Shown here piece by piece: positions 269 through 43,231 of a stretch of 64,000 bases of DNA. A program made the position numbers and the translations under genes. The notes beneath the pieces are model-generated. The model ran no database searches and was not told the DNA's origin. It saw only the letters and a list, made by a program, of their open reading frames with translations. The stretch is from Acidimicrobiales bacterium mtb01 (GTDB lineage: Bacteria; Actinomycetota; Acidimicrobiia; Acidimicrobiales; Ilumatobacteraceae). Position 1 is the stretch's first letter; the number at the start of each line of letters is the position of its first letter. Location: assembly GCA_004379135.1 (NCBI GenBank), contig NBNI01000007.1, positions 186,001-250,000 on the forward strand, written 5' to 3'.

Positions 269-274
269 TACGAT
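269..274 (+). promoter_or_regulatory. -10 box TACGAT, leaderless start of the hybrid kinase gene
   Basis: TACGAT lies 7 bases before the GTG at 282, so transcription would begin at or next to the start codon. No Shine-Dalgarno sequence is present. It supports the choice of GTG 282 over more upstream starts, which would run through the tRNA gene. Confidence 0.5.
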
Positions 275-281
275 CGAGAGC

Positions 282-1847
282 GTGACCGCTGTCGTCGTGG
301 TGATCGTCGTGTGGGCGCTCTCACTCGCGGTCATCGCTCGACTCGTGCGGCAACGCTCTTTGCAGGAGAAGAAGCGGCGCGAGACCTTGATGCGTGCTCT
401 GGTCGAGACGTCGAGCGGTGTCGCACTCGTGTTCGACGCGAAGCGGCGGGTCGTCATCGCCAACGACGACATTCGTCGCCACTCGGGTGGCTCGGCAACG
501 GGGCGCCCGGTCGTCAAGGCATTGGGAGTCGCCGACGATTCAGTGGCCGTGAAGGTTCTCGACGACGTCATGGCGGCGGTGCTCGCCGGTGATTCGTCCG
601 CGGCCGAACTGCCTGACGAGGAGGACGACGGCTCGATGCGCATTCTCGAGATCGAGGGTCGACCGTTGGAAGGCGGTCAGGGTTTCCTCCACGTGAGCGA
701 CGCGACCGAACGTCGTGAGCGCGCGATGCGTTCGGCGCAATCAGAACGAATGGAAGCCCTCGGAGCCTTGGCCGGGGGTCTGGCCCACGACTTCAACAAT
801 CTGCTGTTCGTCACTCTCGGCAACCTGCAGTTGATGGCCACCAACGATGTCGTCATCAACGACGAGAAGTTGTCGAAGTTCGTGTCGCGATCGGTCGCCG
901 CCGTCGAACGTGGCGCCGAGATCACCAAGTCGTTGCTCGCTGTGGCCCGCAGTCAGCCACTCGAGGAGAGCGCCGTCACCCTCGCCGATCTCGTGAAGGG
1001 AATCCTGCCCCTGGTTCGGCAAGCACTTGGAGCAGGTCGCACCGTGTCCGTCGACATCCCCGATCAGTCGGTGCAGTTGATGCTCGACGCCGGACGCCTG
1101 TCGTCGTGCATCTTGAATCTCGCGTTCAACGCCCGCGACGCCATGGGCCCGAACGGCTCGCTCACCATCGCCGCTCACCGGGTCGACGAACTCGATCCGT
1201 CCTGGGGCCTCACCGGATCGTTCATCCGCCTGTCGATCGCCGACGACGGATCGGGGATGAGCGACGAGGTGGTCGCGCGCGCGTTCGAGCCGTTCTTCAC
1301 CACCAAGAAGCCGGGCAGCGGCACGGGTCTCGGGTTGGCCACGGTGTACGCGTTCGCGCGGCAGACCGGCGGCACGGCGACGCTCACGAGCCGACTCGGT
1401 GCCGGCACCACGGTGTCGCTCGTCCTGCCGATCCACGATCCGTCGGACGCAGAAGCGGCGAGCGCGCCTCGCCGCCGCGCCGGCCGTCGTGTCGTGGTGG
1501 CCGACGACGAGCAGTCGCTGGCCGAACTCGTGGCGTCGTGGCTCATCGACGTCGGCGTCGACGCCCGATTCGCCACGTCGCCGAAATCGGCGCTCGATCT
1601 CGTCGAGGAATTCGCACCCGACGTGCTGGTGTCCGACGCGAACTTCGGCGAGGAGATCGACGGGATCGAACTCGCCAAGCTGGCGAAGGCGATCCAACCC
1701 GACCTGGCCGTGATCTTCATGACCGGTTACAGCTCGAGCATGCGAACCCTGCAGGAACTGGGGGAGCGGACACTCGCCAAACCCTTCTCGCGCGACGACC
1801 TGTACGGTGCGCTCATGCCGTATCTCGCCGAGGCCAGCGATGTCTGA
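282..1847 (+). CDS. Hybrid sensor histidine kinase with C-terminal receiver
   Basis: 521 aa. A membrane helix occupies residues 3-21, followed by a PAS-like segment (about 35-145), a HisKA-type dimerisation helix with phospho-acceptor His169 in GLAHDFNN, an HATPase domain (N283, DDGSGM 321-326, GTGLGL 347-352) and a receiver domain (about 402-517) with acidic pair D408/D409, phospho-acceptor D452 and Lys500. The receiver can accept the phosphate internally or relay it. The stop overlaps the receiver-EAL gene by 8 bases, so the two are probably translationally coupled and act in one pathway. No extracellular sensor domain is visible, so the signal is probably cytoplasmic or membrane-borne. GTG 282 is chosen because of the TACGAT box and because upstream frames overlap the tRNA. 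Confidence 0.88.
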   Translation: MTAVVVVIVVWALSLAVIARLVRQRSLQEKKRRETLMRALVETSSGVALVFDAKRRVVIANDDIRRHSGGSATGRPVVKALGVADDSVAVKVLDDVMAAVLAGDSSAAELPDEEDDGSMRILEIEGRPLEGGQGFLHVSDATERRERAMRSAQSERMEALGALAGGLAHDFNNLLFVTLGNLQLMATNDVVINDEKLSKFVSRSVAAVERGAEITKSLLAVARSQPLEESAVTLADLVKGILPLVRQALGAGRTVSVDIPDQSVQLMLDAGRLSSCILNLAFNARDAMGPNGSLTIAAHRVDELDPSWGLTGSFIRLSIADDGSGMSDEVVARAFEPFFTTKKPGSGTGLGLATVYAFARQTGGTATLTSRLGAGTTVSLVLPIHDPSDAEAASAPRRRAGRRVVVADDEQSLAELVASWLIDVGVDARFATSPKSALDLVEEFAPDVLVSDANFGEEIDGIELAKLAKAIQPDLAVIFMTGYSSSMRTLQELGERTLAKPFSRDDLYGALMPYLAEASDV

Positions 1848-3036
1848 GTCCGCTCGGGTCCTGGTGATCGATGATGAGCCGGCGATCTGCGAGCTCATCG
1901 AAGCGGTGGCCGAATCGGCCGGATTCACCGTCCGTGCCGCGAGTTCGCCGGGCGAGATCGAAGCGGCGATCCAGGGCAGGTTCGATCTCGTCGTGCTCGA
2001 CTTGTCGCTCGGTGAGTTGGACGGCATCGAAGTCATGAGCCGCCTCGGGGCGACCCATCGCGGTCTCCCCGTGATCCTCGTCAGCGGTGCCGACGAAACG
2101 CTCATCACAACTGCTGGCCGCATCGCCGAGATGCACCGACTCCGGGTGATCGCGACGTTCGCCAAGCCCTTCTCGCTCGATCTGCTCCGTTCGGCGATGC
2201 TCGAATGGACCCACGTGGTCAACGAGACGATCGATCCGACCGGACCGCGCCTTCGCATCGACGAGGACGATCTGTTCGATCCAGAGTTCATGCATCTCGT
2301 GTACCAGCCCAAGGTGTCCGTCTTCACCGGCGACGTGGTGGGCGTGGAGGCGCTCGTGCGCTGGCGGCATCCCGACAAGGGCGACGTGTCGCCGGCGGCG
2401 TACGTGGCGTTGGTCGAGGAGATGGGTCGCACGTCCGAACTGCTCGACGCGATCATGACCATGGCGGCTCACGATCGCTTCCGCTACCGCGCCTTGGCGT
2501 CGATGCCCGATGTCTCGCTGAACATCTCGGTCCTCGACCTCGACGACGACGAACTGCCCCGACGCGCGCAGCGAATCCTCACCGCCACGTCACCCGCCGA
2601 TTCATGGACCTTCGAAGTCACCGAGACCACTCCGATTCCCGATCTCACTCCGACGGTCGCCGTCCTCACTCGACTTCGACTGCTCGGTTTCAAGTTGGCC
2701 GTCGACGACTTCGGAACCGGGACGAGCAACTACGAGCGACTGCTCGTGGCGCCGTTCACCGAGTTGAAGATCGACCGGGCCATGGTGAGCCGACTCGATG
2801 CCTCGGCGGCCGAACCCGACGCGATGGTCCGCTCGGGTGTCGACGTGGGTCATTCACTCGGTTTGCAGGTGGTCGCCGAAGGTGTGGAGACGGTCGAGCA
2901 GTTCACCCTGATTCGCAGCCTCGGCTGCGACGCCGTTCAGGGCTACTTCGTTTCGGCTCCGGTGAAACCGGTGCACATCGATGCCGCCCTCGACAGGTGG
3001 GCCGACAACTTCGAGGTCCTCGGCCTCGACCGCTGA
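1840..3036 (+). CDS. Response regulator with EAL domain (predicted c-di-GMP phosphodiesterase)
   Basis: 398 aa. An N-terminal receiver (about 1-122) has D11/D12, phospho-acceptor D54 and Lys109. A C-terminal EAL domain (about 143-380) keeps the catalytic signatures: EAL 170-172, N228, E259 (VTET), the DDFGTG loop with D289/D290, K310, and E347/E350 in AEGVE, plus the QGYF segment at 367-370. With all metal and substrate ligands present, hydrolysis of cyclic di-GMP to pGpG is likely. The start ATG lies inside the end of the kinase gene, so the kinase is the likely partner controlling EAL activity by phosphorylation. No GGDEF domain is encoded nearby. Confidence 0.88.
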   Translation: MSESARVLVIDDEPAICELIEAVAESAGFTVRAASSPGEIEAAIQGRFDLVVLDLSLGELDGIEVMSRLGATHRGLPVILVSGADETLITTAGRIAEMHRLRVIATFAKPFSLDLLRSAMLEWTHVVNETIDPTGPRLRIDEDDLFDPEFMHLVYQPKVSVFTGDVVGVEALVRWRHPDKGDVSPAAYVALVEEMGRTSELLDAIMTMAAHDRFRYRALASMPDVSLNISVLDLDDDELPRRAQRILTATSPADSWTFEVTETTPIPDLTPTVAVLTRLRLLGFKLAVDDFGTGTSNYERLLVAPFTELKIDRAMVSRLDASAAEPDAMVRSGVDVGHSLGLQVVAEGVETVEQFTLIRSLGCDAVQGYFVSAPVKPVHIDAALDRWADNFEVLGLDR

Positions 3037-3066
3037 CGTCACAGCGCGACGACTGACGACGTCAGC
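3032..3066. terminator. 9-bp inverted repeat between convergent genes
   Basis: GCTGACGTC at 3032-3040 is repeated as its exact complement GACGTCAGC at 3058-3066, with 17 bases between. The arms contain the stop codons of both converging genes (3034-3036 and, on the minus strand, 3062-3064). It could fold in either transcript and act as a bidirectional terminator, but there is no T tract, so an intrinsic terminator is not proven. Confidence 0.35.
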
Positions 3067-4237
3067 CGCGGCGTGAGATCGCCGCGACCGCCGACAGCAG
3101 TCGATCGACGTCGGCGTGTTCGATGTAGCGGACGACTCCGGCGCGAACGACTCCGCCTGATTCGGCGAGACCGAGTTGGTGGACCACTTCGACGGCGTAC
3201 GCGTGGCCGTCCCACACCGCGATCTTCTGCTCGGCCAAGCGCGCGGCGACTGTCGAGGGGGAAACACCGTCGACGACGAACGCCGCCGTGGGTGCGCGCA
3301 GCGCGGGATTGGCGGGTCCGATGCGTCGAACTCCGTCGATCGCGCCCAACCCGTCCCAGAGATGGGCGAAGACGTCGGCCTCGTAACGCGCGAGTGAATC
3401 CATTCCCTCTTCGAGGAGGAATCGAGCGGCGGCGTCGACGCCGGCGATCGCCTCGAAGTTGGGCATGCCGGTCTCGGGTTTGCGGGGGCCGGCATCACCG
3501 GCCGGGCGCACCCGCCACCAGTCGAGTTCGGCCATGAGGTCGGGCTTGCACCACAGGACGCCCGAGTGCGGCGCGTACCACTTGTAGGGCGACGTGACGA
3601 GGGCGTCGCAGTCGAGAGCGGTGATGTCGATCGGGTGATGCGGAGCGGCCGCCACCGCGTCGACGTACACGCGGGCCCCGACCGCGTGGGCCGCTTCGAT
3701 GATGGGAGGAAGGTCGGGCATCGTGCCGAGAAGGTTCGAGGCCATGGGCACGGTGACCCAGCGCGTGCGGTCGTCGATGAGGGCGATCACCGACTCGGGG
3801 GAGAGCACTCCGGTGGCCGGATCGAACTCGGCGAGAACCTGCTCGGCGCCCGAGCGTGCGCAGGCGCGGCGCCACGGCATGACGTTCGAATCGTGATCGA
3901 GTCGAGTTCCGACGATGCGGTCACCGGGGCGAAGCGTCTCGCTCATGGCGTTGGCGAACGCCATGTTGAACGTGGTCGTGTTGGTGCCGAAACTGAAGCC
4001 GCGTGGATCGGCGCTGAACAACCGTCCGAGTGTCACGCGGGTGCGGTCGAGGAGCGATTGGCATTCCTGTGCGGCGGCGAAGGGTCCGCCAGCGGCCGCG
4101 GTGTGGCCCGATGTCATCCAGTCGGTCATGGCCGTAATCGATACGTCCACGACTTGGGTTCCCGACGGCCCGTCGAACCGCGCCCACTCTCCGGCCGAAC
4201 CGGCCAGTGCAGGGAACCGGTGGCGCAGCGACGACAC
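3062..4237 (-). CDS. Cysteine-desulfurase-like class V aminotransferase
   Basis: 391 aa, full length for fold-type I PLP enzymes of the SufS/NifS-like group. The PLP lysine is K219 in SPYKWYAPHSG; D193 (YVDAVAA) should hold the pyridine nitrogen, and HDSN at 115-118 is the usual region for ring stacking. The N-terminal FPAL...FDGPSGTQ matches the uncharacterised VC1184-type subfamily rather than a true IscS/SufS, and no suf or isc partner is near. The substrate is therefore unknown; it may act on cysteine or on another amino acid. It starts 2 bases after the stop of the small protein gene and probably shares its transcript. Its end faces the EAL gene. Confidence 0.85.
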   Translation of the reverse strand: MSSLRHRFPALAGSAGEWARFDGPSGTQVVDVSITAMTDWMTSGHTAAAGGPFAAAQECQSLLDRTRVTLGRLFSADPRGFSFGTNTTTFNMAFANAMSETLRPGDRIVGTRLDHDSNVMPWRRACARSGAEQVLAEFDPATGVLSPESVIALIDDRTRWVTVPMASNLLGTMPDLPPIIEAAHAVGARVYVDAVAAAPHHPIDITALDCDALVTSPYKWYAPHSGVLWCKPDLMAELDWWRVRPAGDAGPRKPETGMPNFEAIAGVDAAARFLLEEGMDSLARYEADVFAHLWDGLGAIDGVRRIGPANPALRAPTAAFVVDGVSPSTVAARLAEQKIAVWDGHAYAVEVVHQLGLAESGGVVRAGVVRYIEHADVDRLLSAVAAISRRG

Positions 4238-4239
4238 GG

Positions 4240-4512: not shown

Positions 4513-4562
4513 GCATCCATCTTGGCGCATGACGGGGCGGGGCGCACGTTTCGGGCCGCCGG

Positions 4563-4568
4563 TACACT
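4563..4568 (+). promoter_or_regulatory. -10 box TACACT, leaderless start of tig
   Basis: TACACT ends 9 bases before the GTG at 4578. The 65-base gap to the divergent small gene holds no clear Shine-Dalgarno sequence before the GTG, so a leaderless or near-leaderless message is expected. Confidence 0.5.
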
Positions 4569-4577
4569 TCGCTCCCT

Positions 4578-8018: not shown

Positions 8019-9307
8019 TGGACTACCAGCAGGCTCTCGCTTACCTCGACGAACACGCCACCTACGAGAAGACCGGCCGGATCGAGTCGCCTTCTCTGGC
8101 GACGATCGAGCGTCTCTGCGCCGCCATGGGCGACCCGCAGCACTGTGCGCCGGTCATCCACATCACCGGAACCAACGGCAAGGGATCGACCGCGCAGATG
8201 ATCACACGTCTGCTCGTGGCCAGCGGGTTGCGAGTCGGCACGTACATCAGCCCCCACCTCGAGCGGGTCAACGAGCGCATGATGATCGACGGGGTTCCGA
8301 TCTCCGATCACGAGTTCGGCGAGCAGGTTGGGGCGATCGCCGACCTCGAGATCATCGCCGGTGTGCGTCCGGGCTACTTCGACACCTGCACCGCGGCGGC
8401 GTTCCGCTGGTTCGCCGATCAGGCCGTCGATGCGATGGTGATCGAAGTGGGCCTACTGGGTCGGTGGGACGCCACGAACGTCGTCGACGCGCAGGTCGCG
8501 GTCATCACCAACATCGGGCTCGACCACATGGAGTTCGCCGGCCCGACACGTGCGCACATCGCGCGCGAAAAGTCGGGCATCGTGAAGTCGGCGTCGGCAG
8601 TTGTCACCGGCGAAACCGATCCGGAGATGATCGAGATCTTCCGGTCGGCGGGTGGTTCGTTGCTGCTCGTGCGCGACACCGACTTCGCGGTCGATGCCAA
8701 CGAACTCGCGCTCGGCGGCCGCCTCGTGGTGGTGCGCACTCCGACCACGATCTACCCCGACGTGTTCGTGCCACTGCACGGCCGCCATCAGGCCGACAAC
8801 GCCGCCGTGGCCATCACGGCGGTCGAGACGTTCTTCGCGCGACCCCTCGCCGACGACGTGATCGCCGAGGCCATGGCGAAGGTGAGCATGCCCGGTCGTT
8901 TCGAACTGCTCGATCATCAGCCGTTGGTGATCGTCGACGGAGCTCACAACCCGGCTGGCGGCGACGTGTGCGCCAGTGTCTTCTTCGAGGACTTCGATCC
9001 GGCCGGGCGCCGCATCCTGGTGGTTGGTTGTCTGCGAGGTCGCGAACCGATCGAGATGCTCGAGGCCCTGCGCGCCGACGAATTCGACGTGGTGGTGTGC
9101 TGCACCGCCCCGTCGCCTCGCGGCCGACCGGCAACCGAACTGGCCGAAGCCGCCCGTGCCGTCGGCTGTGACGACGTACGGGTGGCCGCCACCGTCGAGG
9201 CCGCGATCGACGAAGCCCGTCGCGAAGCCGGAGCCGACGACGCGATTCTGGTCACGGGTTCGCTGTACGTGGTGGGAGCAGCCCGGCCGCACGTGCTCGG
9301 CCGATAG
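8018..9307 (+). CDS. folC: Bifunctional folylpolyglutamate/dihydrofolate synthase
   Basis: 429 aa, Mur-ligase-like fold. The ATP loop is GTNGKGST at 51-58, and the ADHD-like region is seen as LDHMEFAG. It adds glutamate to dihydropteroate and/or to reduced folates in the cytoplasm. It follows clpX with an overlapping stop/start (TGATG). In many actinobacteria valS separates clpX from folC; it is not present here. The TAG stop is reused as part of the putative -10 box of ndk. Whether both activities are present cannot be told from sequence alone. Confidence 0.92.
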
Positions 9308-9310
9308 GGT
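9305..9310 (+). promoter_or_regulatory. -10 box TAGGGT, leaderless start of ndk, overlaps folC stop
   Basis: TAGGGT lies 8 bases before the ATG of ndk; its first three bases are the folC stop codon. No Shine-Dalgarno sequence precedes the ATG. Confidence 0.45.
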
Positions 9311-15776: not shown

Positions 15777-15782
15777 TAGGAT
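15777..15782 (+). promoter_or_regulatory. -10 box TAGGAT, leaderless start of the radical SAM gene
   Basis: TAGGAT stands 7 bases before the ATG at 15790 in the 23-base gap after rodA. It would let the radical SAM-rne group be transcribed apart from the elongasome operon. Confidence 0.5.
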
Positions 15783-15789: not shown

Positions 15790-17712
15790 ATGACTTCCCT
15801 CTGGTCGCGGGTCGAACCGTTGCTGGCGAGGGTGCGCAAACCAGCCCGCTACATCGGGTGCGAGGACGGGGCCATCGAGCCGCGTCACGGTCAGGGCAAG
15901 GTCGCCTGGCTGCTCGCATACCCCGATGTGTACGAGGTCGGCCTGCCCAATCAAGGGCTGCAGATCCTGTACGAGATCCTGAATGAGCGCCCCGACGCCG
16001 TCGCCGAGCGCACGTACGCTCCGTGGGTCGACCTCGAGGCGCTCATGCGCGAGCGGGGCATTCCGCTCTTCTCGGTCGACACCCACCGGGCCGCCGGTGA
16101 CTTCGATGTCATCGCCTTCAACCTCTCGGCCGAGCTCGTCTACACCAACGTGCTCAACATGCTCGACCTCGGCGGCATTCCTGTGCACACCGCGCGTCGC
16201 GAACCCACCGATCCGGTAGTCGTGGTGGGCGGTCATGCGGCCTTCAACCCCGAACCGCTGGCCGACTTCATCGACGCCGCCGTGCTCGGCGAGGGCGAGG
16301 AAGTGGTCGGAGAGATCAACGAAGTCGTACGTGCCTGGAAGGCGTCCGGCCGTACCTCGCGAGAGGGTTTGTGGCGCGAACTGGCCCGTATCCCGGGCGT
16401 GTACGTGCCGTGCCTGTACGACGTGGTGTACGAGGGCGAGCGCACCGTCTCGATCACGCCTCGGTTCGCCGATGTGCCGGCCACGGTCACCAAGCGCACC
16501 GTGTCCGATCTTGCGCAGTGGGACTATCCGCGTCGGCCGTTGGCACCGCTCACCGAAGTGGTGCACGATCGACTGGCGGTCGAGGTGTTCCGCGGATGCA
16601 CTCGCGGGTGTCGTTTCTGCCAGGCCGGCATGATCACGCGGCCGGTTCGCGAGCGACCGGCCGATCAGGTGCGCACGATGATCACGCGCGGGCTCGAGCG
16701 CACGGGTTACAACGAGGTCTCGCTCACGTCGCTCTCCACCGCCGACTTCAGCGGAATCGAAGACGTCGTGTCGTCGATCGTTCCCGACCCCACCGCGTGC
16801 GGAGCGCCCACGGTGTCGCTGCCGTCGCTGCGGGTCGACGCGTTCACGGTCGGTCTGGCCGCCAAGGTCGCGAGCGGTCGCCGGAGCGGGCTCACCTTCG
16901 CACCCGAGGCCGGTACCTGGCGTCTGCGCAAGGTCATCAACAAGCTCATCACCGAAGCCGATCTGTACGGCGCCGTCGAGTCGGCCTTCGCCAACGGCTG
17001 GTCGCGAACGAAGCTCTACTTCCTCACCGGTCTGCCCACAGAGACCGACGACGACACGCGCGGTATCGCCGAACTCGCGGCCGGATGCGTGGCCATCGGA
17101 AAGAAGTACACGTCGCGCGCGAGCGTCACCGTGAGCCTCGGCGGCTTCGTGCCCAAGGCGCACACTCCGTTCCAGTGGTTCGGCCAGAACGGTGTCGACG
17201 AGTTGCAGCGCAAGATCAATCTCGTCCGCGGTGCGGCGTCGCGCGGTGTGCAGGTCAAGTGGCACGACCCGCGGGCCTCTCTCGCCGAGGGCCTGGCCAG
17301 TCGCGGCGATCGCCGCGTCGGTCGGGTCATCGAACGGGTGTGGAGGGACGGCGGCACCTTCCAGGAGTGGAGCGAATTCTTCGTGCTCGATCGCTGGCTC
17401 GACGCGGCGGCGGCCGAAGGACTCCCGGTCGAGTGGTTCACCACGCGTCATCGCACCGACGACGAGTTGCTTCCCTGGGAGCACCTGAGCGCCGGACTCC
17501 ACCGCGACTTCCTCTGGGACGACTGGCGCGCTTCGCTCGACGAACACGGTCTGCCCGATTGCCGTTGGACGCCCTGCTACGACTGCGGCGTGTGCACGGG
17601 CGACGGACTCGAGCACGTGGTGGCATCGCCGGTTCCTCCGGCTGGTGGAAGTCAGGGCACCGGACAGGACCTCGCGCTCGGGGGAGACGTGCCGGTGGTG
17701 GTGCGCGTATGA
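15790..17712 (+). CDS. B12-binding-type radical SAM protein (TIGR03960-like)
   Basis: 640 aa. An N-terminal Rossmann-like region (about 35-190) resembles cobalamin-binding domains. The radical SAM core (about 255-480) has the cluster triad Cys270, Cys274, Cys277 in RGCTRGCRFCQ. The C-terminal part contains CYDCGVC, a possible second metal or cluster site. The family is widespread in bacteria next to a DUF2344 protein and RNase E/G, and its substrate is unknown; RNA or ribosome modification is a guess from context. It overlaps the next gene by 4 bases. In some bacteria the two are fused into one chain. Confidence 0.88.
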   Translation: MTSLWSRVEPLLARVRKPARYIGCEDGAIEPRHGQGKVAWLLAYPDVYEVGLPNQGLQILYEILNERPDAVAERTYAPWVDLEALMRERGIPLFSVDTHRAAGDFDVIAFNLSAELVYTNVLNMLDLGGIPVHTARREPTDPVVVVGGHAAFNPEPLADFIDAAVLGEGEEVVGEINEVVRAWKASGRTSREGLWRELARIPGVYVPCLYDVVYEGERTVSITPRFADVPATVTKRTVSDLAQWDYPRRPLAPLTEVVHDRLAVEVFRGCTRGCRFCQAGMITRPVRERPADQVRTMITRGLERTGYNEVSLTSLSTADFSGIEDVVSSIVPDPTACGAPTVSLPSLRVDAFTVGLAAKVASGRRSGLTFAPEAGTWRLRKVINKLITEADLYGAVESAFANGWSRTKLYFLTGLPTETDDDTRGIAELAAGCVAIGKKYTSRASVTVSLGGFVPKAHTPFQWFGQNGVDELQRKINLVRGAASRGVQVKWHDPRASLAEGLASRGDRRVGRVIERVWRDGGTFQEWSEFFVLDRWLDAAAAEGLPVEWFTTRHRTDDELLPWEHLSAGLHRDFLWDDWRASLDEHGLPDCRWTPCYDCGVCTGDGLEHVVASPVPPAGGSQGTGQDLALGGDVPVVVRV

Positions 17713-20235: not shown

Positions 20236-20241
20236 TAGAGT
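20236..20241 (+). promoter_or_regulatory. -10 box TAGAGT, near-leaderless start of rplU
   Basis: TAGAGT is 11 bases before the rplU ATG in a 44-base gap. A start 6-7 bases downstream of the box gives a leader of only about 4 bases. Confidence 0.4.
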
Positions 20242-20252
20242 CGTCAGTCGCT

Positions 20253-20564
20253 ATGTACGCAGTCATCGCAACCGGAGGCAAGCAGGTCCGTGTGGCCCAG
20301 GGCCAGCAGGTGCATGTCGAACTGCTGGGCGTCGAACAGGGCGCCGCGGTCGACTTCACTCCTGTGCTCGTGGTCGACGGCGACAAGGTCCTCGCCACGC
20401 CCGATCAACTCGCCGGCGCCAAGGTGTCGGGCCGCGTGGTCGGCACCGCTTCGGGTCCCAAGATCGACGGCTTCACGTATAAGCGTCGCACCAATCAGCG
20501 CCGTCGGTACGGACACCGTCAGCGCTACCAAGTCGTCGAGATCACGGCGATCGCGAAAGGCTGA
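20253..20564 (+). CDS. rplU: 50S ribosomal protein L21
   Basis: 103 aa, standard length. MYAVIATGGKQVRVAQGQ at the start and KRRTNQRRRYGHRQRY near the end are diagnostic of L21, which binds 23S rRNA. It is followed by rpmA after 3 bases, the universal L21-L27 pair. RNase E/G directly upstream is also a conserved neighbour. Confidence 0.98.
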   Translation: MYAVIATGGKQVRVAQGQQVHVELLGVEQGAAVDFTPVLVVDGDKVLATPDQLAGAKVSGRVVGTASGPKIDGFTYKRRTNQRRRYGHRQRYQVVEITAIAKG

Positions 20565-20835: not shown

Positions 20836-21969
20836 CTAGATGTCGATGCCGCGCGGCAGTTTGTGCAGCGGCCAGTCGAGCAGCGCGACACCCTGACGGC
20901 ACGCGTACCGATCGGTCATACCGGCCACGTAGGCCACCGCCGCCGAGAGGGCTTCGTTCGAGCCGGCCGGGGCCTGGCGATGATCGGGGAGCAACCCAGG
21001 GTGAGCCGCGTAGTGCTCGACGAGCGCGCGGAGCAGATCGATCACCGACTGCGCTTGCGCGCGACTGGCCGGTCGCAGATAGATGTTCTCGTAATTGAAC
21101 TTCCGGAACTGCGCGAGGGCTTCGGCCACCTCGGGTTCCATGCCCACTCGACCCGTGTGGGCGGCGGCCGCGATCATGGCGTGGATGAACGCACTGAGTT
21201 GCTTCTGGCGCGTGTCGCCACACCGCGCCCGCACCAACGGGGGGAGATTGTCTGGTGACACGATGCCGGCCGCCACGGCGTCTTCGAAGTCGTGGCACAC
21301 GTACGCGATGCGATCGGCCCAACTGACCACCTCGCCTTCGGGAGTGGACGGGGCCGGACGACTCCAGGAGTGATTGCGAATTCCGTCGAGCGTCTGGGTG
21401 CACAGATTGAGCGGCACGAGAGTGACGTCGGCGCCCCACTGCGCGTGGTCGAATCCGCCGGGAACGAACGGTGACAATGCATCCTCGCTGGCGTGACCGC
21501 CCGGGCCGTGGCCGCAGTCGTGGCCGAGGGCGATGGCTTCGGTGAGAGCGACGTTGAGACCGAGCGGTCGGGCCACCGAGACCGCGACCTGTGCCACTTC
21601 GAGGGCGTGCGTGAGCCGCGTGCGCTGGTGATCATCGGGGAAGACGAACACCTGGGTCTTGCCGGCCAGACGTCGGAACGACGTGGCGTGGAGGATGCGA
21701 TCGCGATCGCGTTCGAAGCAGGTTCGGAACGGGTCGGGATCTTCGTCGACGGCGCGTTGCCCGGCGCCGACCGAACGGGTGGCCAGACGGGCCATGGTGC
21801 TGTCGAGGTGGTCTTCGCGCGCGGCTCGTTCGACGAGGCCGACTTCTCCGGTGCCGGCCCACGAATCGGCGTGAGCGAGCGTGATGGTTTCGTCGCGCGT
21901 GCCCGCCATGGTGCTGGCCCAGCGTTCGGCCCGTTCGGCGATGTCGGGATCGACCGGAGACTCGTTCAC
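20836..21969 (-). CDS. dgt: dGTPase-like HD-domain triphosphohydrolase
   Basis: 377 aa. HD-domain metal ligands are seen as THALEVAQ (His) and the pair in GHDCGHGPGGHASE; a further conserved Asp lies in SWADRIAYVCHDFEDA. RRLAGKTQVF is typical of the family. Enzymes of this group hydrolyse dNTPs, often dGTP, to the nucleoside and triphosphate and so control dNTP pools. GTG 21969 is chosen because a TAGCCT box precedes it by 7 bases. It is divergent from obg, 45 bases away. In many actinobacteria the gene is instead near dnaG, so this location is uncommon. Nucleotide preference cannot be told from sequence. Confidence 0.88.
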   Translation of the reverse strand: MNESPVDPDIAERAERWASTMAGTRDETITLAHADSWAGTGEVGLVERAAREDHLDSTMARLATRSVGAGQRAVDEDPDPFRTCFERDRDRILHATSFRRLAGKTQVFVFPDDHQRTRLTHALEVAQVAVSVARPLGLNVALTEAIALGHDCGHGPGGHASEDALSPFVPGGFDHAQWGADVTLVPLNLCTQTLDGIRNHSWSRPAPSTPEGEVVSWADRIAYVCHDFEDAVAAGIVSPDNLPPLVRARCGDTRQKQLSAFIHAMIAAAAHTGRVGMEPEVAEALAQFRKFNYENIYLRPASRAQAQSVIDLLRALVEHYAAHPGLLPDHRQAPAGSNEALSAAVAYVAGMTDRYACRQGVALLDWPLHKLPRGIDI

Positions 21970-21976: not shown

Positions 21977-21982
21977 AGGCTA
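21977..21982 (-). promoter_or_regulatory. -10 box TAGCCT, leaderless start of the dGTPase gene
   Basis: On the minus strand TAGCCT ends 7 bases before GTG 21969. It lies in the same 45-base gap as the obg box. Confidence 0.5.
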
Positions 21983-21999: not shown

Positions 22000-22005
22000 T
22001 AGGTT
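22000..22005 (+). promoter_or_regulatory. -10 box TAGGTT, near-leaderless start of obg
   Basis: TAGGTT lies 9 bases before ATG 22015. With the TAGCCT box on the other strand it makes a compact divergent promoter. Confidence 0.45.
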
Positions 22006-26026: not shown

Positions 26027-26032
26027 AGGGTA
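26027..26032 (-). promoter_or_regulatory. -10 box TACCCT, leaderless start of murJ
   Basis: TACCCT on the minus strand ends 8 bases before GTG 26018. Together with the moxR box it sets up divergent transcription from a 64-base gap. Confidence 0.45.
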
Positions 26033-26070: not shown

Positions 26071-26076
26071 TAGGGT
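26071..26076 (+). promoter_or_regulatory. -10 box TAGGGT, leaderless start of moxR
   Basis: TAGGGT lies 6 bases before ATG 26083; the intervening GAAAAC is no Shine-Dalgarno sequence at usable spacing. Confidence 0.5.
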
Positions 26077-30428: not shown

Positions 30429-30647
30429 ATGAACCGAGAACCGCTCCTCGTCATCGACTGCGACACCTGCGTCATGCGCGACACCGATGCCTGCCATGAC
30501 TGCGTCATGTCGTATCTCTGCCGCGACGACCCGAGCGAGGCCGTGGTGTTCGACCTGGCCGAGATTCGGGCCATGCGTGTCCTCGCCGAGGCCGGATTGG
30601 TGCCTAACCTTCGGCATCGTGCGCCCGGCCACGCCTCCGCCTCCTGA
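30429..30647 (+). CDS. Small Cys-rich conserved protein
   Basis: 72 aa. It opens with a hydrophobic strand and then a tight Cys cluster: CDTCVMRDTDACHDCVMSYLC, with five Cys in about 21 residues, a likely zinc or iron-sulfur site. The rest is a short helix (EIRAMRVLAEAGLVP). I do not know a function. GAGG before ATG 30429 fits a Shine-Dalgarno. Its last 29 bases overlap the QueG gene, suggesting coupled expression. Confidence 0.6.
   Translation: MNREPLLVIDCDTCVMRDTDACHDCVMSYLCRDDPSEAVVFDLAEIRAMRVLAEAGLVPNLRHRAPGHASAS
30605..30610 (+). promoter_or_regulatory. -10 box TAACCT, leaderless start of queG
   Basis: TAACCT is 8 bases before GTG 30619 and lies inside the coding end of the Cys-rich gene. 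It supports GTG 30619 as the QueG start. Confidence 0.4.
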
Positions 30648-33790: not shown

Positions 33791-34713
33791 GCGGCCGCCG
33801 CGCCGGCATCGACGTCGGCGGAACGAAGTGTCTGGCGGTGGTGGTCGACGACGATCTGCGCGTGGTCGCCGAACATCGAATCGCGACACCGCACGGGACC
33901 GATCAACTCATCGACGGCCTCGTCGACCTCATCGAGCGCATGGGTCCGTGCGATTCGATCGGGCTCGGAGTTCCCGGGCTCATCACCCGCGACGGGGTCA
34001 TCCGCGCCTCGCCCAATCTCTCGTCGGCCATCGACTTCCCGGTGGGGCGCGCGTTGGCCGATCGAATCGGTCGACATGTGCACGTCGAGAACGATGCGAC
34101 CTGTGCGGCCATCGCCGAGTGGCGGGCCGGTGCGGCGGACGGTGCGCGTCACGCCGTGGTGGTCACTCTCGGAACCGGCATCGGCGGCGGCATCATCAGC
34201 GAGGGTCGTGTCGTGCGCGGAGTCAACGGCTTCGCCGGCGAGATCGGCCACATGATCGTCGATCCGAACGGGCCGTTGTGCCCGTGCGGTCAGCACGGCT
34301 GCTGGGAGCGGTTCGCGTCCGGAACCGGTCTCGTGTTCCTCGCGCGGCGAGCCGGACTCTTCTCGGATCGCGACGATGTGCGCGGCGAGGACGTGATGGC
34401 GGCCGCCAGCGCGGGTGACGGGGCGGTGCGCGACGTGCTCGACGAGTTCGGACGGTGGGTCGCGTTGGGTCTGGCCAATCTCACCAATGCGCTCGATCCC
34501 GAAGTCATCGTCATCGGTGGAGGATTGGCGGCGGCGGGAGACGCGGTGATCCAACCGGTTCGGCGTTGGTTCGCCGAACTTCTCTACTCGCCCCGTCTGC
34601 GACCGCATCCGCGCATCGATGTGGCGCGCCATGGTCCGTTGGCCGGGGCGATCGGCGCCGCATTGCTGGCCGAGGTGGCAAACGAACCGTTCTCCGACGG
34701 CATCGGCCACTAG
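33787..34713 (+). CDS. glk: ROK-family glucokinase
   Basis: 308 aa. ATP loop DVGGTK (near 9-14), catalytic Asp in ENDAT, second phosphate loop GTGIGGG, and the ROK zinc site GHMIV plus CPCGQHGCWE with three Cys. It phosphorylates glucose with ATP (or polyphosphate in some relatives). The SRPBCC-glucokinase pairing is seen in other actinobacteria. A second ROK gene lies at 45602. The TAG stop is part of the next promoter box. Confidence 0.88.
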   Translation: MSGRRAGIDVGGTKCLAVVVDDDLRVVAEHRIATPHGTDQLIDGLVDLIERMGPCDSIGLGVPGLITRDGVIRASPNLSSAIDFPVGRALADRIGRHVHVENDATCAAIAEWRAGAADGARHAVVVTLGTGIGGGIISEGRVVRGVNGFAGEIGHMIVDPNGPLCPCGQHGCWERFASGTGLVFLARRAGLFSDRDDVRGEDVMAAASAGDGAVRDVLDEFGRWVALGLANLTNALDPEVIVIGGGLAAAGDAVIQPVRRWFAELLYSPRLRPHPRIDVARHGPLAGAIGAALLAEVANEPFSDGIGH

Positions 34714-34716
34714 GGT
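34711..34716 (+). promoter_or_regulatory. -10 box TAGGGT, leaderless start of alaC, overlaps glk stop
   Basis: TAGGGT stands 6 bases before ATG 34723; the glucokinase stop codon TAG is its first half. Confidence 0.45.
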
Positions 34717-38406: not shown

Positions 38407-38412
38407 TAGGCT
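38407..38412 (+). promoter_or_regulatory. -10 box TAGGCT, leaderless start of pfkA
   Basis: TAGGCT is 6 bases before ATG 38419, with GGGCCC between; no Shine-Dalgarno. The divergent gene has a weaker AACAAT 6 bases before its ATG. Confidence 0.5.
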
Positions 38413-38418
38413 GGGCCC

Positions 38419-39453: not shown

Positions 39454-40055
39454 GCGCCGGCCACGACGATCGCGGGGTAATCGGGCTGACTCGACACGGC
39501 TCGTCCCGGGTAGTCGTAGATCGTGAGAGGTTCGGATGTGAGGCTGCCGTCACCGCGCGGCCACTCGACCAGTGCGCCGTCGACGGCCAGCGAGACCCTC
39601 TCGACACCGTCGATCTCGGCCAAGGTGAGCACGATCTGCGCCACGGCCGCCACCAAGTCGTCGCCGGTCGCCTGGAAGATCTCCGACGACACGTCGACCT
39701 TCACCAGATCGGTCGCCACGTAACGGGCGTCGAGAAGCACGGTGTCGCGGGGAACCGCGGTGCGCAGGCCGACTTGCTGCTCGGCTTCGGTGGGGCCGGT
39801 GAGGAGAGCCGTCATCACAGTTCGCGGATCGAGCGACAACTCACGTCGAACCGAAGTCAGGAAGGAACGGCCCGTTTCGTCGGTTCGTTCGAGATAGATG
39901 CGTCCCGAGCCGGTGGTTCCGACTTCGACGAACTCGATGTCGATCGGCGCGCGTTGCTCGATCGCCGGGATCGGACGCGGAGCCGAGTCGGGGTCGAGTC
40001 CGCAACCCGCCAGGAGTGCGAGGCCGACGACGGGAGTGAACACGAAGCGCCTCAT
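39444..40055 (-). CDS. Lipoprotein with GerMN domain, short LpqB-like
   Basis: 203 aa. A signal peptide ends in the lipobox LLAGC with lipidated Cys18. Residues about 45-150 match the GerMN (sporulation/germination) domain, with RELSLDPRTVMTALLTGPTEAE. Third gene of an mtrA-mtrB operon, where other actinobacteria have lpqB, an approximately 580-residue lipoprotein with GerMN plus a beta-propeller. Here the propeller is missing, yet no frameshift or remnant is visible downstream. LpqB binds MtrB and alters its signalling; a like role is inferred. ATG overlaps the mtrB stop (ATGA). Confidence 0.82.
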   Translation of the reverse strand: MRRFVFTPVVGLALLAGCGLDPDSAPRPIPAIEQRAPIDIEFVEVGTTGSGRIYLERTDETGRSFLTSVRRELSLDPRTVMTALLTGPTEAEQQVGLRTAVPRDTVLLDARYVATDLVKVDVSSEIFQATGDDLVAAVAQIVLTLAEIDGVERVSLAVDGALVEWPRGDGSLTSEPLTIYDYPGRAVSSQPDYPAIVVAGAQP

Positions 40056-41452
40056 CGCAGGACCTCGGCCGGCAACTCGATGATGAAGCACGAGCCCTCT
40101 GTCCCGTCGTGGCGATCCTCCACCCACACCCGGCCGCGGTGGAGTTTCACGTGTTCGTCGACGAGGGCCAGACCGAGTCCGGCTCCCTCCGATCCGCCGC
40201 GTCGTCCGGCCACGCCTCCGCGCGCGAAACGTTCGAAGATCAAGGTGCGCTCCTCGAGGGGGACTCCCGGGCCGTGGTCCTCGACCGTGATCCAGACGAG
40301 CCCGGTGGACACGTCGTCGTCGGGAACGAAGACCGACACCTCGACCTCGGATCCGCCGTGCATGCGTCCGTTGTCGACGAGGTTGGCGATCACTCGGGCC
40401 AACCGGCGACGATCACCCTTGATGATCATCTCATCGGCCGCGGCGGACACCGTCACCGGTGTGCGCGGGAGGCTGCTCGCGGCCACGGCCTGGCGGACGA
40501 ACTCGCCGACCAGGAGCTCTTCTTCGTTCAGACGAATGGCGCCGGCGTCGAAGCGGGAGATCTCGAGCAGGTCCTCCACCAATCCTTGGAAACGTGCGAC
40601 GTCGGCGACCAGAAGATCGAGTGCTGCTTGCGCGCGCTCAGGCATCTCTTCGCGACGGGCCTTCATCACCTCGACGCTGGCCGACAGCGTCATGAGGGGC
40701 GAGCGCAGCTCATGACTGACGTCGGATGTGAATCGCGCGTCGCGCTCGACTCGATCTTGCAGCGCCGTGGCCATGTCGTTGAACGAGCGCGTGAGCGCCT
40801 CGAGGTCGGGGTCGTCGGTCGCTTCGAGGCGAGTGTCGAGTCGACCGCCGGCGAGTGCCTGCGCGGCCTGGCTCGCCGCCGTGAGCGGTCGCACCGCGCG
40901 CGACGCCGAGATGGCGCCGAGAACGATGCCGACGAGCGTCGTGATGCCGGTCGCGAAGATCAAGGCGAAGCCGACGCTGCGCAGTGTGCTCTGCACGTCG
41001 TCGAACGAGGCGAACTCGAAGTAGGCGCCGCCGACCTCCTCGAGCGGCAGGCCCACGGCCAGCACCAATTCGTCGTCGACCGAGAAGCGCATCATCGTGG
41101 GCCGGTTCTCGTCGATCACCTGCGCGAGCATCGAATCGGGAACCTGGCCCGATGAGAAGCGCGCGTCACCGGCGGTCCAGGTGCCGCGGTAGTAGAGGAG
41201 CGGGCGACTCGAACCGAGTCGATCGATCACCGACTGGACATTGGCCGGGGCCGAGCGGAGGTCGACCCCGACGCGCCGGGCCGAGTCGTAGGCCTGTTCG
41301 ATCGCGTTCGACTCGCGTTCGTCGACGAGGTTGCTACGCGTGAAGCTGTAAGTGGCGAGGGCGAGGAAGACCGACAACCCGAGGCTGCCGAGTCCGAAGG
41401 TCAGGAGGATGCGGCTGCGCAGTCCGAAGAAGACTCGACGCCAGGACCGCAC
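40052..41452 (-). CDS. mtrB: Sensor histidine kinase MtrB
   Basis: 466 aa. Two membrane helices (about 13-35 and 160-182) flank a 120-residue extracytoplasmic region; HAMP (183-235), HisKA with His247 in SDVSHELRSPL, and HATPase with ANLVDN, DHGPGVP and GAGLGLALV follow. Position between mtrA and an LpqB-like gene identifies it. In mycobacteria and corynebacteria MtrB-MtrA governs cell wall and division genes. It is shorter than mycobacterial MtrB mainly at the C-terminus. GTG start is 9 bases after mtrA. Confidence 0.88.
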   Translation of the reverse strand: MRSWRRVFFGLRSRILLTFGLGSLGLSVFLALATYSFTRSNLVDERESNAIEQAYDSARRVGVDLRSAPANVQSVIDRLGSSRPLLYYRGTWTAGDARFSSGQVPDSMLAQVIDENRPTMMRFSVDDELVLAVGLPLEEVGGAYFEFASFDDVQSTLRSVGFALIFATGITTLVGIVLGAISASRAVRPLTAASQAAQALAGGRLDTRLEATDDPDLEALTRSFNDMATALQDRVERDARFTSDVSHELRSPLMTLSASVEVMKARREEMPERAQAALDLLVADVARFQGLVEDLLEISRFDAGAIRLNEEELLVGEFVRQAVAASSLPRTPVTVSAAADEMIIKGDRRRLARVIANLVDNGRMHGGSEVEVSVFVPDDDVSTGLVWITVEDHGPGVPLEERTLIFERFARGGVAGRRGGSEGAGLGLALVDEHVKLHRGRVWVEDRHDGTEGSCFIIELPAEVLR

Positions 41453-41461
41453 GGACTCACA

Positions 41462-42142
41462 CTACGGCTGCAGTCGATAGCCGAGACCGCGCACCGTCAC
41501 GACGTGACGCGGATTGGCGGCGTCGGACTCGACCTTGGTGCGAAGACGACGGATGTGCACGTCGACCAGACGACCGTCACCGAAGTACCCGTAACCCCAC
41601 ACGTGATCGAGGAGTTGTTCGCGGCTGAACACGCGTCCCGGATTCTGGGCCAGTTCGCAGAGCAGACGGAACTCGGTCTTGGTGAGGTGGAGTTCGGCAC
41701 CGGCCCGTAGGACCTTGCCTTCGTCGGGAATGATCTCGAGATCGCCGAACACCAGCCGGGGGTGCGCCGGGTTGGCGGGTCGCGCCCGACGCAGGAGTGC
41801 GCGAATGCGCGCGGAGAGTTCCTTCGGCGCGAACGGTTTGGTGAGGTAGTCGTCGGCTCCGGCTTCGAGGCCGGCCACGACGTCGTGCGTGTCGGCTCGG
41901 GCCGTCACCATCACGATGGGAACGTCGCTCGTGCGCCGGATGCTGCGGCACAACTCGAAGCCGTCGATGCCGGGCAGCATGATGTCGATCAGAACGACAT
42001 CGGCGGGCTGTCGTGCGAACTGGATGACGCCTTCTTCGCCACTGGCCGCTTCGTCGACGACCCACCCCTCGTCCTCGAGTGCGAGGCGAACCGCGGTGCG
42101 GATCCGCTCGTCGTCCTCGACTGCCAGGATCCGGGTGGTCAC
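41462..42142 (-). CDS. mtrA: Response regulator MtrA (OmpR family)
   Basis: 226 aa, usual length. The receiver has D10/D11, phospho-acceptor Asp53 (LIDIMLPGIDG) and KPF; the winged-helix DNA-binding domain spans about 130-224 (LTKTEFRLLCELAQNPGRVFSR, VRGLGYRL). GTG 42142 has TAACAT 6 bases upstream, overlapping the suhB stop, so mtrAB can be transcribed by itself. Target genes probably include wall hydrolases such as the M23 protein at 49073, by analogy. Confidence 0.9.
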   Translation of the reverse strand: MTTRILAVEDDERIRTAVRLALEDEGWVVDEAASGEEGVIQFARQPADVVLIDIMLPGIDGFELCRSIRRTSDVPIVMVTARADTHDVVAGLEAGADDYLTKPFAPKELSARIRALLRRARPANPAHPRLVFGDLEIIPDEGKVLRAGAELHLTKTEFRLLCELAQNPGRVFSREQLLDHVWGYGYFGDGRLVDVHIRRLRTKVESDAANPRHVVTVRGLGYRLQP

Positions 42143-42148
42143 GGCGTC

Positions 42149-42154
42149 ATGTTA
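42149..42154 (-). promoter_or_regulatory. -10 box TAACAT, leaderless start of mtrA, overlaps suhB stop
   Basis: On the minus strand TAACAT ends 6 bases before GTG 42142. Its TAA is the stop codon of the inositol monophosphatase gene. Confidence 0.5.
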
Positions 42155-42958
42155 GAGCGTGGGGTCGCGACGATTCGGCGACGGTGCGATGAGATCGAGC
42201 AATCGATCGTGGATGTCGGGTGCCGACACGAGCACGTTGCTCGGTACCGGTGGGCCTCCGGCGAAGTCGGACGCTCGGGCGCCGGCTTCGGTGGCGATCA
42301 GGAGCCCGGCGGCGAGATCCCACGGCTGGAGATTCTCCTCGAAGTAGGCATCGAGTCGACCGTCGGCCACGTAGCAGAGATCGGGCGCCGCTGCCCCGGT
42401 ACGTCGAATGTCGCGAACGTTGGGGAGAAGGTTCGCGACACGCTCACCCTGTTTCGCGCGACGCTCGGACGAGTACGAGAAACCGGTTCCGACGAGTGCG
42501 GTCGCGAGTTCGCCACTCGGCGAACACGCGAGACGACGTCCACCGAGCCACGAACCGTGTCCGCGGGCGGCGACGAACATCTCGCGGGTGGCCGGGAGAT
42601 ACACCGCCCCAGCCAGCGTTCCGGACAAATCGACCGCGGCGATCGACACCGCCCAACCGGCCAGACCGTAGAGGAAGTTGGTCGTGCCGTCGATCGGGTC
42701 GACCAACCACGAGACACCCGATCGCGACTCCTTGGTGCTGCCCTCTTCGCCGATGATTCCGTCATCGGGGCGCCGTGCCTCGATGTCCGACACGATCAGA
42801 TTCTCGCTGGCCGAGTCCCAGCGCGTGACCATGTCGGTCGCGGTCGACTTGGTGCCCACATCGGTGGATCGGTCGAGTGTCGATCGGCCGACGAGTGCGA
42901 GATCGCCCGCCCGCCGCGCCATGGAGGCCGCGGCGTTCATGAGTTCGATCTCGATCAT
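42152..42958 (-). CDS. suhB: Inositol monophosphatase family protein
   Basis: 268 aa. Metal ligands are seen as GEEGS (Glu71/72), DPIDGTTN (Asp87 and Asp90) and WDLAAG. The enzymes dephosphorylate inositol phosphate and related sugar or nucleotide phosphates. Inositol could feed PI lipids here, given the PimB-like gene, but substrate use is unproven. ATG 42958 overlaps the stop of the small membrane gene; an in-frame ATG at 42982 is less likely. Confidence 0.88.
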   Translation of the reverse strand: MIEIELMNAAASMARRAGDLALVGRSTLDRSTDVGTKSTATDMVTRWDSASENLIVSDIEARRPDDGIIGEEGSTKESRSGVSWLVDPIDGTTNFLYGLAGWAVSIAAVDLSGTLAGAVYLPATREMFVAARGHGSWLGGRRLACSPSGELATALVGTGFSYSSERRAKQGERVANLLPNVRDIRRTGAAAPDLCYVADGRLDAYFEENLQPWDLAAGLLIATEAGARASDFAGGPPVPSNVLVSAPDIHDRLLDLIAPSPNRRDPTL

Positions 42959-43215
42959 CGGCGGTCGTTGATGTCGCGCCACTCGCCGAGTGCGCGCAAG
43001 ACCAACACCGCGACGATCGCGGTGCCACCGGCGGCGAGTACGGCGCCGATCACGATTCCGAGACCGCGGGGCCAGGTCGCGTCACCCGAGTATTGGATGT
43101 CGACCAGTGCGAAGCCGATCACTCCGCCGGCGAAGCCGCCGATCAGGATCGCGGCGAACGCCAGCGCGCGAGCGGCCGGCGAGGGCAGGGCCGAGAGAGG
43201 GCGTTCGTCGGTCAC
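42955..43215 (-). CDS. Small two-helix membrane protein, unknown
   Basis: 86 aa with two hydrophobic segments (about 13-37 and 51-73) around a short polar loop containing DIQYSGDATWPRG. It may be related to AtpI-like small membrane proteins, but the similarity is faint and I do not assign it. GTG 43215 has the box TACGAT 6 bases upstream. It heads the suhB-mtrA-mtrB direction and is overlapped by suhB by 4 bases. Confidence 0.68.
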   Translation of the reverse strand: MTDERPLSALPSPAARALAFAAILIGGFAGGVIGFALVDIQYSGDATWPRGLGIVIGAVLAAGGTAIVAVLVLRALGEWRDINDRR

Positions 43216-43221
43216 GACCGC

Positions 43222-43227
43222 ATCGTA
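43222..43227 (-). promoter_or_regulatory. -10 box TACGAT, leaderless start of minus-strand unit
   Basis: The minus-strand reading TACGAT ends 6 bases before GTG 43215. Two of its bases (43226-43227) are shared with the opposite box TAGGCT. Confidence 0.5.
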
Positions 43228-43231
43228 GGCT
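43226..43231 (+). promoter_or_regulatory. -10 box TAGGCT, leaderless start of the mannose-transfer gene
   Basis: TAGGCT ends 6 bases before GTG 43238. It interlocks with the minus-strand TACGAT, so both RNA polymerases cannot open this site together. Confidence 0.5.

What the first reader, a model, noticed from the sequence alone, without database searches (positions are those of the whole stretch)
269..43231. TAnnnT boxes 6-9 bases before start codons: widespread leaderless transcription
Seen on both strands before units that are not inside operons: starts at 282, 4578, 9319, 15790, 21969(-), 22015, 26018(-), 26083, 30619, 34723, 38419, 42142(-), 43215(-), 43238, and with a slightly longer gap 20253. 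Most are TAGGNT or TACNNT. In DNA this GC-rich a TAnnnT at that exact place is expected only by rare chance per gene, so the repetition is not noise. These starts lack Shine-Dalgarno sequences, while operon-internal starts rely on overlap coupling. Leaderless messages are known in actinobacteria; what stands out is how dominant they seem and the G-rich middle of the box.
Basis: partly seen in the sequence, partly recalled or inferred. Interest (0 to 1): 0.72.

Follow-up and report, generated by a model that had tools for sequence, protein, structure and literature searches.

The report
Leaderless promoters in an actinobacterium
Many genes in this actinobacterium carry a minimal promoter (TAnnnT) placed so close to the start codon that the messenger RNA would begin at, or a few bases before, the start codon; this is a known habit of actinobacteria, here used somewhat more heavily than in most relatives sampled.

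Summary
All 15 listed starts have TAnnnT upstream: 14 at a gap of 6-9 bases, rplU (20253) at 11. In 864 kb of the same genome the box peaks at gap 6-9 and precedes 73 of 234 divergent starts, against 2% in shuffles. It follows the start codon in related species, e.g. moxR 45 of 45 loci. No -35 motif is seen. Best reading: leaderless or 1-5 nt leader transcription from a bare -10 element. No 5' ends were mapped.

This is ordinary for actinobacteria: about 20% of genes in Zheng 2011, 26% of primary-TSS genes in M. tuberculosis. Here it is at the high end, about 35-52% of transcription-unit heads and 24-36% of genes.

Corrections: 5 of the 15 starts lie within 25 bp of, or overlap, a same-strand upstream gene; boxes at 41452(-) and 46450(+) were missed; the box middle is G+C-rich, with G favoured mainly at position 3.

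Side findings: RbpA was not detected in 41 genomes of the order, although CarD is present; the rplU start shows an unexplained nucleotide-level constraint.

The parts
269..274 (+). TACGAT, -10 box 7 bases before GTG 282 (hybrid histidine kinase/response regulator)
4563..4568 (+). TACACT, 9 bases before GTG 4578 (trigger factor)
9305..9310 (+). TAGGGT, 8 bases before ATG 9319 (nucleoside diphosphate kinase); only 11 bp behind the upstream gene
15777..15782 (+). TAGGAT, 7 bases before ATG 15790 (radical SAM protein); box at a candidate start in 25 of 26 usable loci
20236..20241 (+). TAGAGT, 11 bases before ATG 20253 (rplU, ribosomal protein L21); predicted short leader; TAnnnT at gap 7-11 in 57 of 57 loci
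20251..20263 (+). rplU start element CTATGTACGCAGT: T before ATG and third codon GCA invariant in 57 of 57 loci, C at -2 in 93%
21977..21982 (-). TAGCCT, 7 bases before GTG 21969 (HD-domain phosphohydrolase); box in 65 of 69 loci
22000..22005 (+). TAGGTT, 9 bases before ATG 22015 (obg); box at gap 6-9 in 55 of 78 usable loci
26027..26032 (-). TACCCT, 8 bases before GTG 26018 (murJ); box in 11 of 25 usable loci
26071..26076 (+). TAGGGT, 6 bases before ATG 26083 (MoxR-like AAA ATPase); box in 45 of 45 loci
30605..30610 (+). TAACCT, 8 bases before GTG 30619 (QueG-like Fe-S protein); lies inside the end of a called upstream ORF
34711..34716 (+). TAGGGT, 6 bases before ATG 34723 (class I/II aminotransferase); 9 bp behind the upstream gene
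38407..38412 (+). TAGGCT, 6 bases before ATG 38419 (phosphofructokinase)
41459..41464 (-).
42149..42154 (-). TAACAT, 6 bases before GTG 42142 (response regulator); 9 bp behind the upstream gene
43222..43227 (-). TACGAT, 6 bases before GTG 43215 (86-aa ORF, no Pfam match); shares its central TA with the opposite box
43226..43231 (+). TAGGCT, 6 bases before GTG 43238 (glycosyltransferase family 2); with 43222-43227 forms AnnnTAnnnT in a 22-bp divergent gap
46437..46442 (+).

Best explanation
The boxes are -10 elements of housekeeping-type promoters (TAnnnT, with no -35) placed so that RNA polymerase starts on, or 1-5 bases before, an ATG or GTG start codon, giving leaderless or nearly leaderless mRNAs. 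Ribosomes would then start on the 5'-terminal codon without a Shine-Dalgarno contact. Shown here: the motif, its exact spacing, the absence of a -35 motif, the nearly exclusive ATG/GTG start codons, and conservation of box plus start in related species. Inferred: the transcription start (from the usual 6-7 base distance between -10 element and +1, recalled), the sigma factor, and translation from the 5' end. The genome mixes this with Shine-Dalgarno starts, which are commoner inside operons.
For: All 15 sites present. Sharp gap 6-9 peak in 864 kb against shuffles and decoy codons. Shine-Dalgarno-like 4-mers in only 1/73, 0/12, 0/12 and 2/42 of box-bearing starts. A mixture model seeded with NTANNNTN but free in spacing settled on gap 6-9 with A 0.93 and last T 0.98. 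Of 231 assigned starts, 130 have gap 6, 228 are ATG/GTG and 3 TTG. The base before the start codon is C in 175/231, against 234/395 of other starts; C is commonest at -1 of a start site in M. tuberculosis. Orthologous box and start in other species: moxR 45/45, HD protein 65/69, radical SAM 25/26, obg 55/78; best rearranged-motif control 13/45, 14/69, 10/26, 7/78. Published start-site maps in M. tuberculosis and S. avermitilis show TANNNT promoters and 22-26% leaderless genes.
Against: No RNA 5' ends are available. A box at gap 8-9 may leave a 1-3 base leader, and rplU probably a longer one. Boxes are not universal at orthologues: 20 of 73 obg loci lack one at gap 5-9, 7 of them with the box at gap 18 and GAGG before the start codon. 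My gene caller misplaces some starts (it missed the HD gene at 21969 and chose 15832 over 15790). The freely fitted model also filled its first class in shuffled sequence (49-77%), though with a degenerate motif at gap 0 and about half the likelihood gain. Hard assignments carry a false-positive share: 47-68 shuffled against 231 real. Lack of Shine-Dalgarno is partly forced by the box's position.
Confidence: 0.92

Rival explanations
1. The boxes are chance hits picked by eye in a GC-rich genome.
Against: Enrichment is about 9 to 15-fold over shuffles, larger over decoy codons, and confined to gap 6-9; orthologous conservation.
Confidence: 0.01
2. The boxes are -10 elements, but the real start codons lie further downstream, so the messages have ordinary leaders and the gene starts are misread.
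For: Start annotation in high-GC actinobacteria is error-prone; my own caller chose a different start at 15790.
Against: Pfam families begin at or within 5 residues of the proposed start in trigger factor, NDK, Obg, PFK and L21. A box keeps gap 6-9 to a start codon in nearly all orthologues of moxR, the HD protein and the radical SAM protein. Shine-Dalgarno-like 4-mers are nearly absent at box-bearing starts.
Confidence: 0.04
3. The boxes belong to an alternative sigma factor or are binding sites of a regulator.
For: No -35 element is seen; the middle of the box shows a clade preference for G at position 3.
Against: Targets are unrelated housekeeping genes (trigger factor, obg, murJ, ndk, pfk), and the motif equals the main -10 motif mapped in other actinobacteria, also without a -35 in M. 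tuberculosis.
Confidence: 0.03

Closest known systems
TA-led (leaderless) genes of Actinobacteria, Zheng et al. 2011 (PMC3160421; abstract and one Results section read)
   Same: [quoted passage not shown] little information in the middle three bases
   Different: They report around 20% of genes; here about 24-36% by my estimates, which are counted differently. Whether an acidimicrobial genome was among theirs was not checked
Leaderless transcriptome of Mycobacterium tuberculosis, Cortes et al. 2013 (PMC3898074; passages read) and mycobacterial ribosome profiling, Shell et al. 2015 (PMC4633059; passages read)
   Same: TANNNT -10, no -35 motif, start codon at +1, ATG or GTG required, no Shine-Dalgarno
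   Different: In M. tuberculosis growth-related genes were depleted among leaderless ones; in this window trigger factor, obg, ndk, murJ and pfk carry boxes, not tested genome-wide by function. RbpA was not detected in this clade
Leaderless-transcription genomes predicted by GeneMarkS-2, as summarised in StartLink (PMC9581028; passages read)
   Same: Mixed use of leaderless and Shine-Dalgarno starts, predicted in 21.6% of bacterial species and in up to 40% of transcripts per genome
   Different: Not run here; my estimate for heads (35-52%) is near or above that upper bound but is counted differently
Bidirectional promoters with overlapping -10 elements, Middlemiss et al. 2023 (PMC10268837; passages read)
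   Same: 43215/43238: two opposed -10 boxes share bases, and predicted starts lie 23 bp apart, within their 7-25 bp definition
   Different: Their common form has starts 18 bp apart; here the boxes share only TA and both products would be leaderless; 1 of 25 double-box pairs in the own sample

Membership tests
Leaderless genes (actinobacterial TAnnnT type) | TAnnnT -10 element at a spacing that puts +1 on or within about 5 bases of the start codon | tested here: met
   +1 itself inferred from spacing
Leaderless genes (actinobacterial TAnnnT type) | No Shine-Dalgarno before the start codon | tested here: met
   present in 1/73, 0/12, 0/12 and 2/42 box-bearing starts of the four spacing classes; partly forced by the box's position
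Leaderless genes (actinobacterial TAnnnT type) | Start codon ATG or GTG | tested here: met
   118 ATG, 110 GTG, 3 TTG of 231 assigned starts; the caller itself penalises TTG
Leaderless genes (actinobacterial TAnnnT type) | Mapped RNA 5' end at the start codon | not testable with these tools
   no RNA data held
Leaderless genes (actinobacterial TAnnnT type) | Translation from the 5'-terminal codon | not testable with these tools
   needs ribosome profiling or N-terminal proteomics
Mycobacterial-type -35-less promoter with RbpA and CarD | No -35 or extended -10 motif | tested here: met
   231 box-aligned upstreams: at most 0.084 bits per column; TTGA at spacer 14-20 once
Mycobacterial-type -35-less promoter with RbpA and CarD | CarD present | tested here: met
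   249-aa protein with both CarD domains in the own genome
Mycobacterial-type -35-less promoter with RbpA and CarD | RbpA present | tested here: not met
   PF13397 in 0 of 41 genomes of the order (own included; 22 of them at least 90% complete) and 7 of 60 of the phylum; a diverged RbpA could escape the model
Bidirectional promoter (43215/43238) | Opposed overlapping -10 elements with start sites 7-25 bp apart | tested here: inconclusive
   sequence fits; starts not mapped; the 86-aa ORF has no Pfam match

The most novel reading that the evidence does not exclude
Acidimicrobiia, and Ilumatobacteraceae in particular, run a near-majority leaderless regime at transcription-unit heads in which a three-base -10 box, without -35 element or RbpA, is the only 5' signal for both transcription and translation start, including for core growth genes. 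CarD alone would then support open-complex formation at such promoters.
Probability: 0.3. Interest if true: 0.5.

Novelty: new member of a known kind. Interest (0 to 1): 0.3.

Why it matters
It adds a little-studied actinobacterial lineage to the heavy users of leaderless messages, and shows box-plus-start conservation across related species that can be used to fix gene starts. It also suggests that the -35-less TAnnnT promoter does not need RbpA, because the clade has the promoter type but no detectable RbpA. At obg the box lies at leaderless spacing in some members of the genus and at short-leader spacing with GAGG in others, a natural series for studying how one mode turns into the other.

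Tried and rejected
A general class of symmetric, shared-core divergent promoters: in 99 high-scoring divergent pairs of the own sample, 66 had a box on at least one side and 25 on both (starts were allowed to move, and no rearranged-motif control was run in that call). Only the pair 43215/43238 shares its box core, and there is no peak at the bidirectional spacing, so this is a single case. The same call gave 20 of 39 and 5 of 39 pairs in the order sample, 88 of 94 and 40 of 94 in the obg loci, none with a shared core.

A special 5' coding bias of leaderless genes: codons 2-8 of 231 assigned leaderless and 395 other starts differ little (codon 2 has less A, 0.19 against 0.26). Not pursued.

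Loss of the anti-Shine-Dalgarno: the own assembly holds no 16S match; of four relatives asked, two matched, and the order relative G026 has CACCTCC at the 16S end. Rejected for that relative; untested in the own genome.

rplU start element as a repeated operator: CTNNGTACNNAG occurs twice in the 864-kb sample (five shuffles: 0-4), once at rplU and once 623 bases from the nearest called start, so no set of such sites was seen. Rfam at gathering threshold finds only a tRNA in the window.

Freely fitted mixture models are not a safe measure: shuffled sequence also filled the first class (49-77%) with a degenerate motif at gap 0. Hard assignments with fixed parameters were permissive too (47-68 of 711 shuffled starts, mean 59, against 231 real), so I give the excess over shuffles as the low bound. 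G056 (same class, lower GC) gave only 9 called genes and was left out.

Box alignment picks the best TAnnnT-like hexamer, so its 100% T at position 6 is partly by construction.
Full report
Where this is. The window is bases 186001-250000 of contig 1 of a 2.56-Mb, seven-contig, 98% complete genome. The nearest named relatives of its Obg protein are metagenome-assembled Actinomycetota, Acidimicrobiia and Ilumatobacteraceae at 81-97% identity.

The observation. All 15 listed starts have TAnnnT upstream, 14 of them with 6-9 bases between box and start codon, and 20253 with 11. Fourteen of the 15 genes match a Pfam family, and trigger factor, NDK, Obg, PFK and L21 begin at or within 5 residues of the proposed start. 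The 86-aa ORF at 43215(-) has no Pfam match. Two further starts with equally good boxes, 41452(-) and 46450(+), were not listed.

More than chance. I wrote a gene caller that picks starts from coding composition alone and applied it to the window plus 40 stretches of the same genome: 864 kb, 774 starts. Strict TAnnnT at gap 5-9 was found before 73/234 divergent starts, 12/116 distant same-strand starts, 12/65 at 26-49 bp and 42/359 at 25 bp or less; the shuffle means were 2.1, 1.2, 1.4 and 0.9%. In-frame ATG/GTG codons inside genes gave 4/3589, 5/1954, 3/1058 and 5/5804. The positional profile has one peak, at gap 6-9. Letting the start move to another in-frame codon gave 101/234, 21/116, 15/65 and 46/359, against 6-25, 3-13, 0-9 and 4-37 for nine rearranged motifs, so under this looser test the closely spaced class is not clearly above its worst control.

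Size of the effect. A mixture model (leaderless box, Shine-Dalgarno, none), seeded with motif shapes and fitted freely, put 66% of divergent heads, 36% of other heads and 18% of operon-internal starts in the leaderless class, all at gap 6-9. Shuffled sequence also filled that class (49-77%), but with a degenerate motif at gap 0 and a log-likelihood gain of 336-341 instead of 710, so the free fit alone is not a measure. With parameters fixed from the own genome, the share was 52% of 372 heads and 18% of 339 internal starts, against 0% in shuffled sequence. Hard assignments at posterior above 0.8 were 133/213, 50/159 and 48/339; shuffles with the same priors gave 27-44, 10-15 and 3-10. Subtracting the mean shuffle leaves about 45, 23 and 12%, or 35% of heads and 24% of all genes. 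So the share lies at about 35-52% of heads and 24-36% of genes. The same fixed model, which favours the genome it was learned on, gave for heads 39% in two other members of the family (n=80), 33% in six other genomes of the order (n=177), and 38, 36, 24, 19, 15 and 9% in six genomes outside the class (n=48-63 each). Loci around obg in relatives gave 71% (n=472), but they sample one neighbourhood. The own genome is therefore at the high end, without a clear break from its relatives.

Anatomy. Among 231 assigned starts the gap is 6 in 130, 7 in 53, 8 in 22, 9 in 17, and 5, 10 or 11 in 9. Box position 1 is T in 78%, position 2 A in 98%, position 6 T in 100% (the last partly by construction of the alignment). 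Nothing upstream is informative: no column from -40 to -1 relative to the box exceeds 0.084 bits, and TTGA at spacers 14-20 occurs once. Start codons are 118 ATG, 110 GTG, 3 TTG, with the caveat that the caller penalises TTG. The base before the codon is C in 175/231, against 234/395 of other starts. Shine-Dalgarno-like 4-mers occur in 1/73, 0/12, 0/12 and 2/42 of box-bearing starts, partly because the box occupies that stretch, whereas 124/359 closely spaced starts have one (11% in shuffles). Some ribosomal-protein and chaperonin starts in the sample, for example S12 and GroES, look Shine-Dalgarno-led (families recognised by recalled patterns and by eye).

Conservation. Taking orthologues from the 80 loci and allowing nearby in-frame starts, a box at gap 6-9 was present for moxR in 45/45, the HD phosphohydrolase 65/69, the radical SAM protein 25/26, obg 55/78, the QueG-like protein 8/8, murJ 11/25 and rplU 22/57. 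The best of six rearranged-motif controls was 13/45, 14/69, 10/26, 7/78, 8/8, 5/25 and 14/57. The QueG-like case is uninformative, since its control also scores 8/8. Of 68 murJ hits, 43 were dropped because the match began too far into the protein or too near a locus end; several of the rest are remote. Many loci are close relatives and not independent. At obg, 53 of 73 loci with a match from residue 1 have a box at gap 5-9; of the other 20, seven (L025-L031, same genus) have it at gap 18 with GAGG between box and start codon, and seven have it at gap 10-13. The promoter seems to persist while a leader is gained or lost.

Mechanism. The simplest account is a -10-only promoter of the housekeeping sigma factor whose +1 falls on or next to the start codon, and translation from the 5'-terminal ATG/GTG. 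This matches published data: M. tuberculosis has TANNNT, no -35 motif and 26% leaderless among genes with a primary start site; Streptomyces avermitilis 22%; and in M. smegmatis an ATG or GTG at +1 was necessary for leaderless translation. In mycobacteria RbpA and CarD help open complexes form (start of the abstract of PMC5302886, listing). Here CarD is present, but the Pfam RbpA model found nothing in 41 genomes of the order, own included, and 7 of 60 phylum genomes had it, with C. glutamicum as positive control. A diverged RbpA could escape the model.

Divergent pairs. Among 99 high-scoring divergent pairs, 66 had a box on at least one side and 25 on both, the latter all with intergenic regions of 22-101 bp (starts were allowed to move and no motif control was run there). 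In 43215/43238 the two boxes share their TA inside a 22-bp gap, which resembles the bidirectional promoters described in enterobacteria, but it is the only such pair of the 25.

rplU. Its longer gap is shared by relatives: TAnnnT at gap 9, 10 or 11 in 56 of 57 loci and 7 in one. The base before ATG is T in 57/57, the one before that C in 93%, and the third codon is GCA in 57/57, although GCA is 6.8% of alanine codons in the own sample. At 106, 115 and 102 four- or six-fold sites with a nearly invariant residue in moxR, obg and the HD protein, none was fixed at 97% or more; in rplU one other site of 19 was. In 28 further rplU starts from the class and phylum, GCA is present in 10, and many look Shine-Dalgarno-led by eye. 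This is a nucleotide-level constraint at the start of the message; its cause is unknown.

Novelty. The kind is known. A search for papers holding both 'leaderless' and 'Acidimicrobi' gave two: in one the passages read list only the class's anti-Shine-Dalgarno, the other was seen in the listing only and concerns sterol degradation. So I found no description for this class in that library, which lacks most subscription journals. I file it as a new member of a known kind, of modest interest.

Noticed in passing
window 20236-20263 (rplU) and 57 related loci: The rplU start has an invariant T before ATG and an invariant rare GCA third codon (57 of 57 loci), with the promoter box at a longer gap than usual; CTATGTACGCAG is an imperfect palindrome overlapping the start codon.
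   Followed up: partly
own genome and 40 relatives: No match to the RbpA Pfam model in 41 genomes of the order, although CarD (249 aa with a lysine/alanine-rich tail) is present in the own genome.
   Followed up: partly
window 43215-43238: Divergent pair 22 bp apart whose two -10 boxes share their central TA; both products would be leaderless.
   Followed up: partly
L025-L031, upstream of obg: Seven members of the genus keep a TAnnnT box but at gap 18 with GAGG before the start codon, suggesting a switch between leaderless and a short Shine-Dalgarno leader within one genus.
   Followed up: partly
window 169-240 (-): A tRNA gene on the minus strand begins 41 bases from the opposite start codon at 282, so any promoters of both that lie between them share that stretch.
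   Followed up: no
window 47936-48430: HNH endonuclease-domain protein with no obvious box or Shine-Dalgarno at its called start.
   Followed up: no
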